Shown one piece after another: positions 1-7,330 of a stretch of 64,000 nt of DNA. This DNA is from Heterostelium album PN500 (lineage: Eukaryota; Evosea; Eumycetozoa; Acytosteliales; Acytosteliaceae). Below the pieces are notes generated by a model. It did not search any database and had not been told where the DNA came from. It saw nothing but the letters and a program-made list of their open reading frames with translations. The DNA lies in contig NW_008805086.1 in NCBI RefSeq assembly GCF_000004825.1, positions 434,001 through 498,000 of the forward strand, written 5' to 3'. How positions within the stretch are numbered: position 1 is the first letter of the stretch; each line of letters starts with the position of its first letter. Both the position numbers and the translations under genes were made by a program.

Positions 1-1547
1 TTTACTTAAAGATCAGATTAATCTTAAATTAGATGAGTTTAAATCACTTATCAAAATAATTAATACTTTAAAACATAATAATAATAATAACAATAGTAGT
101 ATTAGCAGTAATAATAGTGTTACAGATGATAGTTTAGATTATCAGATTAATGATGATAGTTTAGATTATGATAATGATAATGATAATGATAATGATAATG
201 ATAATGATAATGATAATGATAATGATAATGATAATGATAATGATAATGATAATGATAATGATACAACTATTAGATATTCTATTGAATCGATTATTAATTC
301 TGCTCTATCGATAGAATCAGTACAACAATTCATTAAACATCATGATCAAACATTGTTTGACTATCGGTACAATAACAATAATATTGTTAGTTTTATCAAA
401 GATCATACTACTAGCATCGATATTATCATCCTAAAGTTAATCAATATTCATAACAATCAATATAAACAATCAATTTCAAAGAATAATGTTATCGATAATC
501 AATCAACAACAAATAATAATATGATCATCGATAGTTACAATATCACCACAACATTAACACCGAATGATATTGATACTTATCAAAAATTTGTACGACTATC
601 AATAAGTGTGACCAACCGAAATGATATTCTCAAGACAACTAAGACCACAACAACTACCGTAGAGAGAAGAATACCACAACAAAGAACTGATCCAATAATA
701 ACATTCAAACAAGAACTATCAAAGGAACTCGTTAAAGAAAGATATCTCCAGAATCTAGTGCCAACCACCAATTCCGATGGCATTCCGATTTATATATTTA
801 AATTTTTGTTACTTGGAGATGCCTGTGTTGGAAAGGTAAATACATCCAAATATACTACCATCGATTAACTTCATTACTAATCTTTACAATATAGACACAA
901 ATGATAAATAGATTTGCACATAATGAATTCGATAGTTCACCTGGACATGGCACTAGTTTGGATTTCAAAGTGCGTATATTCATTGAAGATAAATTTACGA
1001 TTAGGCTACAACTATGGGATACCTCTGGAACATATTCATTCCACAGAATGAACAGTCTCTACTTTCCTGGTCAACTAGCCATCATTATTGTCTATGATGT
1101 CACCGATATCGTTTCGTTTGAAAGTAAGTTATAAAAATAATATTACCACTTATGGGTATCAAAAGAGTGACACTCAATTGTTTTTAATATTCATATCATC
1201 CATTAACAATATTATAAATCTATTTAGATGTAACAAGATTGTTTAACTTGATCAACGAGAGCAATGGAACGATGGCATATAAAATATTGGTTGGCAACAA
1301 ATGTGATAGTCCTAAAAGAGTGATCGACTATGAAACCGGTCATAATTTGGCGGATTCGCTTGGAATATCATTTATGGAGACATCTGCCAAAACTGGACAA
1401 GGAATTGAAGAGCTATTTATGAAGCTATACAACATCCATAAAAATATGATTTTGAACAAAGCAATACCAAATCAACAAAAAAACGATGATAATAATAATA
1501 ACAATAAACCTCAGGCAAATGGTTTATTCTCATTTTTCAAGAGATAA
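1..1547 (+). CDS. B-box / Ras-Rab-like GTPase fusion protein, copy 1 (5' end outside window)
   Basis: The frame is open from base 2. Exons are 2-835, 895-1123 and 1228-1547 (460 residues visible). The first visible residues match the coiled region of copy 2 (3226-5182), so the missing 5' part should encode a B-box zinc finger. The C-terminal third is a small GTPase: G1 GDACVGK-TQ with the intron splitting the P-loop between K and T, G3 WDTSG, G4 NKCD and G5 ETSAK. The residue after G3 is T where Ras and Rab have the catalytic Gln, so GTP hydrolysis may be slow (inference). The protein ends LFSFFKR without a Cys for prenylation, so classical lipid anchoring is unlikely. It also differs from copy 2 by an expanded Asp-Asn tract. 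The family is clear from the motifs; the cellular role is unknown. Confidence 0.85.
170..262 (+). repeat. GATAAT hexanucleotide microsatellite inside the GTPase-fusion exon
   Basis: About 15.5 units of GATAAT encode alternating Asp-Asn in frame. The equivalent tract in copy 2 (3856-3876) has 3.5 units, so copy 1 gained about 12 units (24 residues) or copy 2 lost them. The six-base unit keeps the frame whatever its number. Confidence 0.97.
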
Positions 1548-1627
1548 ATAATAATAATAAAATTTTTAATTTTAGGAAATGATCATTTTATTTAAATATA
1601 ATACAATGATTGTTGATTTTTAATGAT

Positions 1628-1908
1628 TTACAATACAGTGGCATTCACCTTAATACCCAAAATACCCAATACCGTTGCAAGGATATTCAAATCAACAAGT
1701 GATTGATTCGAGTTTGATGTTTGACCAGTTAGAGTATTGTTACTGTTGTTCAACATTATTTCATTCTTCATTGTTGTTTGATTGGCTTGGACAGATGATC
1801 CAAGTTTGGTGATTGAAGCTAAGATATCAGAATATATAGATTAGAATTTAAGTTACTTTGGAAGACCTTATATGTTTTTAATATGATTTAATTACCAATT
1901 AAAGTCAT
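1628..1908 (-). CDS. HssA-like mini-protein, copy A (67 aa, one intron)
   Basis: Exon 1 is 1908-1896 and exon 2 is 1818-1628 on the minus strand; the intron 1895-1819 starts GTAAT and ends CTTAG in phase 1. The protein begins MTLIASITKLGSS, the N-terminal signature of the dictyostelid HssA/2C/7E family, and has the usual intron after four codons. Unlike typical members it lacks a Gly/Cys-rich tail and ends in a hydrophobic stretch, DLNILATVLGILGIKV. It converges with the GTPase gene, stop codons about 80 bp apart. The family is expressed in prestalk and other developing cells in D. discoideum; the molecular role is unknown. It is too short and too split to stand out as an ORF, but three aligned copies here support the model. 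Confidence 0.75.
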
Positions 1909-2545
1909 TTTTGATAGTTTTGATTGTAAGTATTTTATATTTTTATATTTTACTTTGTTTTTGATGATATTTATTGACTAAAAAGTAAAGTATTTATAGT
2001 TTCTTATCATTTTCATTCTGCTATCATAAGAACGGTGAAATCTTGTAGAATCTTGAATCAAGATCATCAAATTATCCTAGTGTGTCAAGATATGTTGGTT
2101 AAATAATGAATGTATAGATATTCCGATATCCAACAAATGTCACATCCAATCATTTCAGTTAATTGCCTTGAATTAAATTTCAGTTGTTAAAAATGATCAT
2201 TAGATTAAATTACTTTTGATTTATTAAAATATTGGTGATCCACCATCTGATTTATAATATTAAAACATAAAGATATAACTCTGACTATATTTGTTCAACT
2301 GATAGATTAAGATTAAATTAAAAATAAGTACACTGACAAACCAAAATGTTTAAACACACACAAATCGAGTGGGTTATATAAATTTCCTTTTTAAAAATAA
2401 TTGTCATCATTTTTAGTTTCAAGAGTAATCTGTGTGTTTTGTGTATGTTGATGTGTCAGTGTGTCTGTCAATCACAATTCTATATTTTTATATCATTGTC
2501 TACTGAAATCTGGTCAATCTTTGATCATATCTGACATTTGATAAT
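1628..2545 (-). repeat. Inverted duplication, left arm (HssA-like gene A plus its upstream region)
   Basis: Read on the minus strand this segment aligns with the plus strand of about 5966-6888, over the HssA-like gene and some 630 bp of upstream DNA. Shared landmarks are the motif AACCCACTCGATTTGTGTG, a block ending TCTTGACACACTAGGATA, and the gene itself. Ends are approximate because alignment was by eye. Confidence 0.85.
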
Positions 2546-3225
2546 TTAAAAAAGCTCTACCCAATTCAAATAAAGATTAATATAACCTTGAATCTTGACA
2601 TTAAATCTCTTTTTAGAAAATTAAGATTTCAACAAAATAAATATACTCTTAGATTTTACAATTTCTAAAAAATTAATTACATTTTATTTAGTCCTTTCTA
2701 TTAATTGTCACTTATATCTATGAAATAAAAATTAATTCAATTTATCTAAAATTTATCTAAAATGACTTAATTAGTATGGAATTAATTCCACATAATATAA
2801 ATTACTATGTAAATTTATAGGATTATATTAATTTTGTTTTTCTTGATTAAAAAAAATCTTAGATCACCAAACTTTTCTTTAGTTCAATCAAATCAAACTT
2901 TCAAGAAGGAATTGATATAATCAGGATTAATTGGAAATAGTTAAATTGGACAATTCTCCAGAATCTTTTGTTAATTTGAACAAACTTGCAAATGTTTTTA
3001 GTAGCTTGTGAATAAAATGTTTGTGTTTTTATATTGAAAATCCAAAGGATAATAATAAATAAGATCTTTTTTTTAAAGATTTTCTTCTTCAAAGCATAAA
3101 CACAGTTTTTATTATTTTTTGAAATATTAATATAATTATTTTTTTCACACATTGCATTTCTTCAAAGTTTTTTCAATCCCTGCTGACATATTACACCAAC
3201 CACTTTAATTGCACACAATAAGTAA
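1909..3225. other. Intergenic: promoter side of HssA-like A and leader of the second GTPase gene
   Basis: 1909-2545 is the upstream part of the inverted repeat. 2546-3225 is AT-rich and holds no supported gene; the minus-strand ORF at 2901-3152 is low-complexity and has no counterpart in the neighbouring duplicate. Confidence 0.7.
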
Positions 3226-5182
3226 ATGGAAATAGAGTGTTCAAAACATAATAAAACACTTGAATATATTTGTTTTCAATGTAATTTGTCGTTTTGTTAC
3301 AGGTGTTCGAATGATCATCCAAAATCACATCCCAGACATACTTGTGAACATATCGATGATATCAAATTACAATTGTTAAAGACAATAGATAACTCAAAGC
3401 TCATTAATAATAATAGTAATAACAATAATAGTAGTAACAGAGATAAAACTAGTAATAGAAATGAGAATGTTCAAGAAAGTAATAATAATAATAATGTTAA
3501 TAGTACAAAAGAAACAGAAAATAACTATATACAATCACAAATTGATAATCTATGGTTAAAAATAAAAGATTCATCAAAACAATACAGGTCACTCGAAGAT
3601 AAACAACAAAAGATAAGCGATCACTTTGCAATATTACATAAATATTTGATTGAAGAGGAACTTAAATTAAAGAAACCGATTATAAATGATATCGATTTAC
3701 TTAAAGATCAGATTAATCTTAAATTAGATGAGTTTAAATCACTTATCAAAATAATTAATACTTTAAAACATAATAATAATAATAACAATAGTAGTAATAA
3801 TAGTGTTACAGATGATAGTTTAGATTATCAGATTAATGATGATAGTTTAGATTATGATAATGATAATGATAATGATACAACTATTAGATATTCTATTGAA
3901 TCGATTATTAATTCTGTTCTATTGATAGAATCAGTACAACAATTCATTAAACATCATGATCAAACATTGTTTGACTATCGGTACAATAACAATAATATTG
4001 TTAGTTTTATCAAAGATCATACTACTAGCATCGATATTATCATCCTAAAGTTAATCAATATTCATAACAATCAATATAAACAATCAATTTCAAAGAATAA
4101 TGTTATCGATAATCAATCAACAACAAATAATATGATCATCGATAATTACAATATTACCACAACATTAACACCGAATGATATTGATACTTATCTAAAATTT
4201 GTACGACTATCAATAGGTGTGACCAACCGAAATGATATTCCCAAGAAAACTAAGACCACAACAACTACCGTAGAGCGAAGAATACCTAAACAGAGAACTG
4301 ATCCAATAATAACACCCAAACAAGAACTATCAAAGGAACTCGTTAAAGAAAGATATTTCAAGAATCTAGTGCCAACCACCGATGACAATGGCATTCCGAG
4401 TTATACATTTAAATTTTTGTTACTTGGAGATTCCTGTGTTGGAAAGGTAAATACATCCAAATATACTACCATCGATTAACTTCACTATTAATCTTTACAA
4501 TATAGACACAAATGATAAATAGATTTGCAAATAATGATTTCGATAGTTCACCTGGAAATGTCACTCAATTGGATTTCACACTGCGTATATTCATTGAAGA
4601 TAAATTTACGATTAGGCTACAACTATGGGATACCTGTGGAAATAATTCATTCCACAAAATTAACATTTTCTACATTCCTGGTCAACTAGCCATCATTATT
4701 GTCTATGATGTCACAGATATCGGTTCGTTTGAAAGTAAGTTATAAAAATAATATTACCACTTATGGGTATCAAAAGAGTGACACTCAATTGTTTTTAATA
4801 TTCATATCATCCATTAACAATATTATAAATCTATTTAGATGTAACAAGATTGTTTAACATGATCAACGAGAACAATGGAACGATGGCATATAAAATATTG
4901 GTTGGCAACAAATGTGATAGTCCTAAAAGAGTGATCGACTATGAAACCGGTCATAAGTTGGCGGATTCGCTTGGAATATCATTTATAGAGACATCTGCCA
5001 AAACTGGACAAGGAATTGAAGAGCTATTTATGAAGCTATACAACATCCATAAAAATATGATTTTGAACAAAGCAATACCAAATCAACAACAAAACGATGA
5101 TAATAATAATAATAATAATAACAATAATAATAATAACAATAAACCTCAGGCAAATGGTTTATTCTCATTTTTCAAGAGATAA
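3226..5182 (+). CDS. B-box / Ras-Rab-like GTPase fusion protein, copy 2 (597 aa)
   Basis: Exons are 3226-4446, 4506-4734 and 4839-5182. Residues 5 to about 42 form a B-box-type zinc finger (C5, H8, C17, C20, C25, C28, then closely spaced His: CSKH, CFQC, CYRC, DHPKSHPRH). Asn-rich linkers and an alpha-helical, probably coiled-coil region follow. Residues from about 400 are a small GTPase: GDSCVGK-TQ, WDTCGNN, NKCD, ETSAK. The catalytic Gln after G3 is replaced by N, and there is no C-terminal Cys motif. B-box plus coiled coil is the front part of TRIM-like proteins, so this may be an oligomeric scaffold with a GTPase read-out (inference). I know no named protein with this order. Its exon 2 differs from copy 1 mainly at the switch regions. 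Confidence 0.9.
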
Positions 5183-5253
5183 ACAACCAATAATTATTTA
5201 GGAAATGATCATTTTATTTAAGTATAATACAATGATTGTTGATTTTTAATGAT

Positions 5254-5519
5254 TTACAATACAGTGGCATTCACCTTAATACCCAAAATACCCAATACAG
5301 TTGCAAGGATATTCAAATCAACAAGTGATTGATTCGAGTTTGATGTTTGACCAGTTAGAGTATTGTTACTGTTGTTCAACATTATTTCATTCTTGAATGT
5401 TGTTTGGCTGGTTTGAACTGATGATCCAAGTTTGGTGATTGAAGCTAAATAAAAAGTAATTTAAATTAATTTTATATTCAAATGATCTAATGTATAAACT
5501 ACAAACCAATTAAAGTCAT
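5254..5519 (-). CDS. HssA-like mini-protein, copy B (67 aa, one intron)
   Basis: Exon 1 is 5519-5507, the intron 5506-5445 (GTTTGT to TTTAG), and exon 2 5444-5254. The spliced product starts MTLIASITKLGSSVQTSQT, has one notable change (F for M in the 'TTMKNE' segment), and ends LGILGIKVNATVL like copies A and C. It lies convergent to the second GTPase gene exactly as copy A lies to the first, so gene pair and spacing were duplicated together. Its upstream DNA is unlike that of A and C, so its expression may differ (inference). Confidence 0.72.
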
Positions 5520-6614
5520 TTTAGATTATACTAGCAAATTTAATAATATTTGATTTGTATTCTTTTAATATTTTGAAAATAAGTTGGTCGATATTTATAG
5601 GTTTTTTCAATATCTTTTTATTTATATGAAATTTATATCAGACAAAGTACATACATTGAATCTTATAGAATTTAAATAAATCAATCACAGATCTTAATCT
5701 GGAATAATAAAGATAAGAATGGATTATTCAAATAATGTGCAAGCTGTGACCTATTAGAATAATAAATGGTGATCACCAAATCATTGAAATCTCAATCTAT
5801 TATTGAGTACTGATTATTCAAATTTAAATGACATAACTTTCCAATAATTAATATCTACAACCAAATATTACCCATATCTTAATTTTCCTTTAAGAGATGT
5901 TTTTATGATTCCAGGTTTTATTTTTCTATGTTTGAAAAGGGGATAGTGTTCTTTCATAATAAATCAGAAAATTGATATGCCATATATGATCAAAGATATT
6001 GATCAGATTTCAATAGAATGATATAAAAGTATAGAATTGTGATTGACAGACACACTGACATATCAACATACACAAAACACACAGTTTACTCTTGAAACTA
6101 AAAATGATGAAAATTATTTTTAAAAAGGAAATTTATATAACCCACTCGATTTGTGTGTGTGTTAAAATATTTTGGTTTGTCAGTGCACTTATTTTTAATT
6201 TAATCTTAATCTATCAGTTGAACAAATATAATCAGAGTCATATCTTTATGTTTTAATATTATAAATCAGATGGTGGATAACCAATATTTTAATAAATCAA
6301 AAGTAATTTAATCTGATGATCATTTTTAACAACTGAAATTTAATTCAAGGCAATTAACTGAAATGATTGGATGTGACATTTGTTGGATATCGGAATATCT
6401 ATTTATTCATTATTTAACCAACATATCTTGACACACTAGGATATTGATAATCTTGATTCAAGATTCTACAAGATTTCACCGTTCATATGATAGCAGAATG
6501 AAAATGATAAGAAACTATAAATACTTTACTTTTTAGTCAATAAATATCATCAAAAACAACATAAAAGAACTAAAATATAAAAACATTCAATATCTACAAT
6601 CAAAACTATCTAAA
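5520..6614. other. Intergenic between two divergent HssA-like genes
   Basis: 5520 to about 5965 is unique AT-rich DNA upstream of copy B. About 5966-6614 is the upstream part of the right inverted-repeat arm and so the likely promoter of copy C. No ORF or RNA gene is supported. Confidence 0.7.
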
Positions 6615-6888
6615 ATGACTTTAATTGGTAAGCTATTCTTTATTAGAATTATTCTTTTCTATTTTAATGTATTAATCTATATATTGTAATAACTAAGCAT
6701 CAATCACTAAACTCGGATCATCAGTTCAAACCAGCCAAACAACAATGAAGAATGAAATAATGTTGAACAACAGTAACAATACTCTAACTGGTCAAACATC
6801 AAACTCGAATCAATCACTTGTTGATTTGAATATCCTTGCAACTGTGTTGGGTATCTTGGGTATTAAGGTGAATGCCACTGTATTGTAA
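5966..6888 (+). repeat. Inverted duplication, right arm (HssA-like gene C plus its upstream region)
   Basis: This is the partner of 1628-2545 in the opposite orientation. About 3.4 kb separates the arms, and the second GTPase gene and HssA-like copy B sit between them. Similarity is high through the promoter-side DNA and the gene and fades just past the stop codon. Confidence 0.85.
6615..6888 (+). CDS. HssA-like mini-protein, copy C (67 aa, one intron)
   Basis: Exon 1 is 6615-6627, the intron 6628-6697 (GTAAGC to CTAAG), and exon 2 6698-6888. The product starts MTLIASITKLGSSVQTSQT and ends LGIKVNATVL. Exon 2 has the same 191-nt length in all three copies and the reading frame is conserved, which argues for function. 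Its upstream region mirrors that of copy A. See copy A for the family. Confidence 0.75.
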
Positions 6889-7330
6889 ATCATTAGATCA
6901 TGAGATACATCAACAATAACATATAATTCATTGTAAAACTAAATATCGTAAATGATCTATTTCTCCTTGTGAAAATAAAAATAAAATAAAAATCAAATAT
7001 ATATTCGTTCATTGAATTCTTAGACGAGTCTAACAAAACGTCGATTCTAATTAATTTAAGAAAAAATTCCCCAAAAAAAATTCTGAACATATGCACTTGT
7101 GTTTGGATTGAACACAAAAATTTAAAATTAAATTGTTTTTTTTAATTTAAAAAAAAAAAAAAAAAAGTAAATTAAAAATTGATCATCAAAAAACAACAAC
7201 ATTTATTTTTTTCATTATTCGTTTAATATTTCACATATATATACACATACATAATAAATTTTATATAGAACTTGACATATTATATCATTCTATACATTTT
7301 AGATATATTAAAAAGTTAAAAAAAAACAAA
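6889..7330. other. Intergenic, AT-rich
   Basis: Contains a poly-T/poly-A junction at about 7136-7165 and the probable leader of the UBX gene. No gene seen. Confidence 0.7.

What the first reader, a model, noticed from the sequence alone, without database searches (positions are those of the whole stretch)
895..4838. Switch-region exon diverges almost only by replacements while the adjacent intron is identical
Comparing copies 1 and 2, the 104-nt second intron is identical by eye and the first differs at two bases. Exon 2 (895-1123 against 4506-4734) differs at about 20 bases, of which all but about one change the amino acid. The changes cluster in switch I, the residues after G3, and switch II. 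That is the pattern of diversifying selection on an effector-binding surface.
Basis: seen in the sequence. Interest (0 to 1): 0.72.

Follow-up and report, generated by a model that had tools for sequence, protein, structure and literature searches.

The report
Fast-changing switch region in duplicated Rab-like genes
Two neighbouring copies of an amoeba gene, a zinc-finger protein fused to a Rab-like molecular switch, differ mainly in the part that usually touches partner proteins while nearby non-coding DNA is almost unchanged, which hints at natural selection for new binding partners but does not prove it.

Summary
Exon 2 differs at 20 of 229 bases (19 of them in codons whose amino acid changes), intron 1 at 2 of 59, intron 2 at 0 of 104; 14 of 16 replaced residues lie in switch I or II. 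The inference is partly supported. Exon 2 dN/dS is about 2.7 but not significantly above 1 against its own silent sites. The unit's upstream non-coding DNA diverges 5-6%, so the identical intron 2 is itself unusually conserved and exaggerates the contrast; against that background the replacement excess is 1.6-2-fold, p = 0.009-0.056 by alignment. The DNA searches found no third-gene donor. An independent tandem pair of the same family repeats the pattern more strongly: introns 0 of 143, exon 2 about 20% diverged in patches between identical islands. There, however, silent sites changed as much as replacement sites, which point mutation plus selection does not explain. A third pair does not show it. 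Best reading: a B-box-Rab family whose switch surface is being diversified, by point replacements here and by segment replacement in the sister pair, resembling snake-venom genes.

The parts
1..835 (+). Copy 1 (C25a) exon 1, 3' part; the start codon lies 476 bases before the window. B-box, linker, P-loop at its end
   Evidence: 1311 nt in all
836..894 (+). Copy 1 intron 1 (59 nt)
   Evidence: 2 differences from copy 2
895..1123 (+). Copy 1 exon 2: switch I, G3, switch II
   Evidence: 20 of 229 differ
1124..1227 (+). Copy 1 intron 2 (104 nt)
   Evidence: identical to copy 2
1228..1547 (+). Copy 1 exon 3 with stop: NKCD and SAK motifs, C-terminus GLFSFFKR
3226..4446 (+). Copy 2 (C25b) exon 1
   Evidence: 1221 nt
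4447..4505 (+). Copy 2 intron 1
4506..4734 (+). Copy 2 exon 2
4735..4838 (+). Copy 2 intron 2
4839..5182 (+). Copy 2 exon 3 with stop
1572..3225 (.). Upstream part of the duplicated unit (small gene copy plus intergenic), used as divergence yardstick
   Evidence: 95 mismatches in 1555 aligned bases against the stretch upstream of copy 1; blastn: 73 mismatches in 1545 columns

Best explanation
Two intact, tandem-duplicated genes of a multi-copy family that joins a B-box-like zinc finger and a long linker to a Rab-like GTPase domain, in a genome that looks dictyostelid. Shown: divergence between the copies is concentrated on the switch surface and the stretch just before the P-loop and is mostly replacement; an independent pair (C15) repeats it on overlapping positions, with unchanged introns inside the diverged block. 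Inferred: after duplication, selection favoured altered switch surfaces, hence altered binding partners. In this pair that went by single replacements; in C15 short segments were replaced whole. Recent duplication and some gene conversion keep introns, most of exon 1 and most of exon 3 alike. Likely working mode (inferred): a scaffold whose Rab-like head binds a changing partner; 7 of the 8 genes compared lack the catalytic Gln, so GTP hydrolysis may be weak in them.
For: Replacement excess in exon 2 over introns plus exon 2 silent sites, p = 0.0007, and p = 0.0013 with adjacent changes collapsed; 14 of 16 replaced residues in the switches, 10 of 16 also replaced in the C15 pair, p = 0.026; C15: introns 0/143, exon 2 N 33.7/174, flanking non-coding 20/394; open frames and splice sites kept in both copies; omega against C7 0.26; an inverted Ran-like pair in the same genome has its differences in introns and flanks, none seen in exons.
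Against: Exon 2 codon test not significant. p = 0.056 against the full upstream alignment. Whole-gene replacement divergence, 48/1425, is below that yardstick. Introns of the two pairs pooled (2/306) are below exon 1 silent sites (15/420), p = 0.011, so introns are an unduly low baseline. C15 exon 2 has omega 0.46 (2dlnL 3.30). The C9 pair has diverged introns (17/69, 13/76). The region was picked by eye; one genome, one control pair.
Confidence: 0.5

Rival explanations
1. Conversion mosaic without positive selection: the duplicates are older than they look; conversion homogenised intron 2, exon 3 and most of exon 1, while the end of exon 1 and exon 2 escaped and carry near-background divergence with weak constraint.
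For: Intron 2 plus exon 3 silent sites 0/164 against 78/1505 upstream, p = 0.0006; silent sites of the whole gene 11/498, p = 0.004. The diverged block is continuous from about 4172 to 4680. Block N 33/364 against block silent 7/163, only p = 0.07.
Against: Replacements exceed the upstream divergence 1.6-2-fold, which escape alone does not give. In C15 both introns lie inside the diverged block and have no mismatch, and islands within exon 2 have no silent change; tracts would have to stop at both exon borders twice.
Confidence: 0.25
2. A local mutational process (segment replacement or complex multi-base mutation) drives the divergence, with selection playing little part.
For: C15 exon 2: silent 11.3/48 as high as replacement 33.7/174; silent changes sit only outside the longer unchanged islands, 6 in 11.7 sites against 0 in 19.7; in-frame indels in switch II.
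Against: Confined to exons; the introns between the diverged exon parts show no substitution in C15. In C25 the changes are mostly single bases and nearly all replacement. No donor found for two C15b patches at up to 3 mismatches.
Confidence: 0.12
3. Relaxed constraint: one or both heads are decaying pseudo-GTPases.
For: Gln70 position lost in 7 of 8 genes compared, Thr43 position lost in C25a, C25b and C7; C7 lost the P-loop Ser/Thr and the common C-terminus; C9 genes are interrupted in exon 1.
Against: Relaxation brings the replacement rate to the silent rate, not above it (10.1% vs 3.9%). Frames are open, and positions 48, 65, 80 stay Phe, Trp, Tyr in both C25 copies. Omega against C7 0.26-0.43.
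Confidence: 0.1

Closest known systems
Accelerated exon segment switching (ASSET) in snake three-finger toxin genes (PMC2474615 passages; PMC2711939 abstract and passages)
   Same: Duplicated genes with conserved introns while short exon segments at the molecular surface are replaced by unrelated ones; mechanism reported as unknown. Fits the C15 pair.
   Different: Those are secreted venom proteins; here it is a GTPase switch region. The C25 pair shows point replacements rather than switched segments.
Rab GTPases, nearest Rab-1A
   Same: PF00071 at 135.9 bits; P-loop, NKCD, SAK motifs (motif names recalled).
   Different: Fused behind a B-box-like finger; no C-terminal cysteine in 8 of 8 models; Gln70 position not Gln in 7 of 8.
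TRIM23/ARD1-type proteins (RING, B-box, coiled coil, Arf domain; recalled)
   Same: Zinc finger and linker joined to a small GTPase domain.
   Different: No RING hit; GTPase is Ras/Rab-type, Arf model only 40.2 bits; B-box below cut-off.
Species-specific small GTPase amplification in Dictyostelia (PMC8923023, passages and section 9)
   Same: Lineage-specific GTPase copies; the paper calls the cause unclear.
   Different: The word B-box does not occur in that paper's main text; I saw no statement on switch-surface divergence in the parts read.

Membership tests
Ras/Rab superfamily | PF00071 above the curated cut-off | tested here: met
   135.9 bits against 21.6
Ras/Rab superfamily | P-loop GxxxxGK[ST] | tested here: met
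   GDACVGKT and GDSCVGKT in the C25 copies; C7 has GKK
Canonical hydrolysing Rab | Gln at the Rab1A 70 position | tested here: not met
   T and N in the C25 copies; Gln only in C15a among 8
Canonical Rab | C-terminal prenylation cysteines | tested here: not met
   copies end GLFSFFKR
B-box zinc finger | PF00643 above the curated cut-off | tested here: inconclusive
   best model but 18.4 (C25a) and 20.3 bits (C7) against 24.1
TRIM | RING finger before the B-box | tested here: not met
   no RING family among Pfam hits at E 0.01; the finger starts at residue 3-5
ASSET-type exon segment switching | Introns conserved, exon segments replaced | tested here: inconclusive
   C15 pair fits; C25 only partly; C9 introns diverged
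Positive selection | dN significantly above dS | tested here: inconclusive
   omega 2.66, 2dlnL 1.16

The most novel reading that the evidence does not exclude
The family is an amoeba set of integrated Rab1 decoys: a TRIM-like B-box scaffold carrying a non-prenylated, largely non-hydrolysing Rab1-like head whose switch surface is diversified copy by copy, partly by whole-segment replacement, in an arms race with microbial proteins that grip host Rab1.
Probability: 0.1. Interest if true: 0.88.

Novelty: new variant of a known kind. Interest (0 to 1): 0.5.

Why it matters
Dictyostelid small GTPases are amplified species by species for a reason called unclear, with food bacteria, predators, infectious agents or toxins offered as possibilities (PMC8923023 section 9). 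A family in which the effector-binding surface diverges fastest between fresh duplicates would make that question directly testable. It would also extend exon segment switching, described for venom genes, to an intracellular switch protein.

Tried and rejected
Third-gene conversion of exon 2: DNA searches found only the two copies and C7; C7 is too distant in silent sites (exon 2 pS 0.31-0.32 against 0.04 between the copies). Polarised with C7, the 20 exon 2 differences are 7 copy-2-derived, 2 copy-1-derived, 6 unresolved, 5 without an aligned C7 base, so there is no sign of a tract copied from C7. For C15b, a DNA search found itself, C15a, C15c and the L055 copy, and two patches of 27 and 26 nt had no other match at up to 3 mismatches. 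A spliced (retro-copied) donor for C15 was dropped as main idea because the islands inside exon 2 have no silent change. Mutation spectrum: C25 exon 2 has 3 transitions in 20 against 60 in 133 in the rest of the unit, p = 0.014; C15 exon 2 has 16 in 45; not decisive. The first codon-model run stuck at its start for two partitions and was repeated. The global alignment of C15 flanks overstated their divergence; local alignments replaced it. A badly aligned 100-base window (3072-3171, 17/50) was dropped from the yardstick; one search gives results with and without it. Of 11 loci fetched, five (L054, L056, L057, L058, L062) gave the modelled genes; L055 was aligned but not counted because its exon 1 is disrupted; L059, L060, L061, L063 and L064 were not modelled. 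No structure prediction was run, since the protein must be spliced and the tool takes proteins read straight from the DNA. Paper searches on the topic listed no such family among the rows shown (20 of 305, 4 of 4, 7 of 7, 0 of 0); two searches sought precedents (15 of 18 and 10 of 72 shown).

Full report
What the gene is. The window is C25:434001-498000 of a 32.9 Mb genome in 39 contigs. Copies 1 and 2 encode proteins of 619 and 597 residues: a B-box-like finger (Pfam 18.4 bits, below the 24.1 cut-off), an Asn/Asp-rich linker, and a Ras/Rab domain (135.9 bits) nearest to Rab-1A among solved structures. Intron 1 falls right after the P-loop lysine, intron 2 after the switch II region, so exon 2 is the switch I to switch II module.

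The observation. NG86 gives exon 2 dN/dS 2.7 (18.2 N, 1.8 S), exon 1 0.82, exon 3 5 N and 0 S. The codon model gives omega 2.66 with 2dlnL 1.16, not significant. Against introns plus exon 2 silent sites p = 0.0007; with adjacent changes collapsed (15 N events) p = 0.0013.

The yardstick. The duplicated unit reaches upstream of each copy. That stretch, a small gene plus intergenic DNA, differs at 73 mismatches in 1545 blastn columns (I took about 1480 aligned bases after gaps, my estimate) or 95/1555 by MAFFT. Intron 2 with exon 3 silent sites (0/164) is below it, p = 0.0006, and introns of the C25 and C15 pairs together (2/306) are below exon 1 silent sites (15/420), p = 0.011. So the introns are an unduly low baseline, from conversion or chance. 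Against the upstream stretch the exon 2 replacement excess is 1.6- to 2-fold: p = 0.009 (blastn), 0.016 (MAFFT without one badly aligned window), 0.056 (MAFFT, all). The excess begins in the last 80 codons of exon 1 (15 N, 3 S). Whole-gene replacement divergence (48/1425) is below the yardstick. These p-values are for a region picked by eye and are not corrected for that.

The family. A DNA search found one more close copy, on C7 (74%), and protein searches led to members on C15 and C9. Besides the C25 pair I modelled C7, C15a, C15b, C15c, C9a and C9b. The C9 genes are interrupted in exon 1 as modelled, and C7 has lost the common C-terminus.

The second pair. C15a and C15b are tandem neighbours. 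Introns have 0 mismatches in 69 and 74 aligned bases (intron 2 with 3 small indels); three flanking non-coding stretches have 20 in 394; exon 1 is 4.4% silent and 2.5% replacement, exon 3 11% and 7%, exon 2 24% silent and 19% replacement. The diverged block runs from the last codons of exon 1 (10/81) through exon 2 to the first codons of exon 3 (12/36), with both introns inside it. Within exon 2, islands of four or more unchanged residues have 0 changes in 19.7 silent sites, other unchanged residues 6 in 11.7. This is patchwise replacement, neither a uniformly old exon nor plain point mutation; omega is 0.46, so by the usual test it does not show positive selection. Ten of the 16 replaced C25 positions are replaced in C15 too, p = 0.026.

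The third pair. C9a/C9b has exon 2 at pS 0.25 and pN 0.20, but its introns differ at 17/69 and 13/76, and exon 3 has pS 0.04 and pN 0.08. The low-intron pattern thus holds in 2 of 3 pairs.

Control. One inverted pair of Ran-like genes on C16 (identity by recalled motif) shows its differences in introns and flanks, with none seen in exons by eye. It is a single control; the other four regions asked for were not obtained.

Function. The catalytic Gln position is T in C25a and N in C25b, the switch I Thr position G and V, while positions 48, 65 and 80 stay Phe, Trp and Tyr (the Rab effector triad, recalled). C15a keeps Gln and Thr. None of the 8 models ends in cysteine. I infer a scaffold with a binding head whose partner preference changes quickly. 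Sequence does not tell whether the partner is an own protein or a microbial one.

Literature. Three-finger toxin genes of snakes show conserved introns and switched exon segments, mechanism unknown (PMC2474615, passages; PMC2711939, abstract and passages). Dictyostelid GTPases are amplified species by species for an unclear reason (PMC8923023, passages and section 9). Lineage-specific expansions in dictyostelids were reported with positive-selection signals (PMC8535579, passages).

Verdict. Diversification of the switch surface is the best reading, but dN/dS above 1 is not established and the intron yardstick flattered it.

Noticed in passing
window 1620-1920 (-), 5240-5520 (-), 6614-6890 (+): Copies of a small two-exon gene (about 67 residues) duplicated along with the GTPase unit and also beside the C7 copy; no Pfam family above its cut-off.
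   Followed up: partly
window 164-262: A long GATAAT array in copy 1 exon 1 codes for (Asp-Asn)n and is much shorter in copy 2.
   Followed up: no
whole genome G000: At least 149 matches to the B-box-like finger, many in open frames of 550-620 residues without a GTPase match noted.
   Followed up: no
L072 and L073 (C16): Inverted pair of Ran-like genes with differences only in introns and flanks by eye.
   Followed up: partly
L062 6423-6956 (C7 copy): P-loop reads GKK and the C-terminus is cut short relative to the other copies.
   Followed up: no
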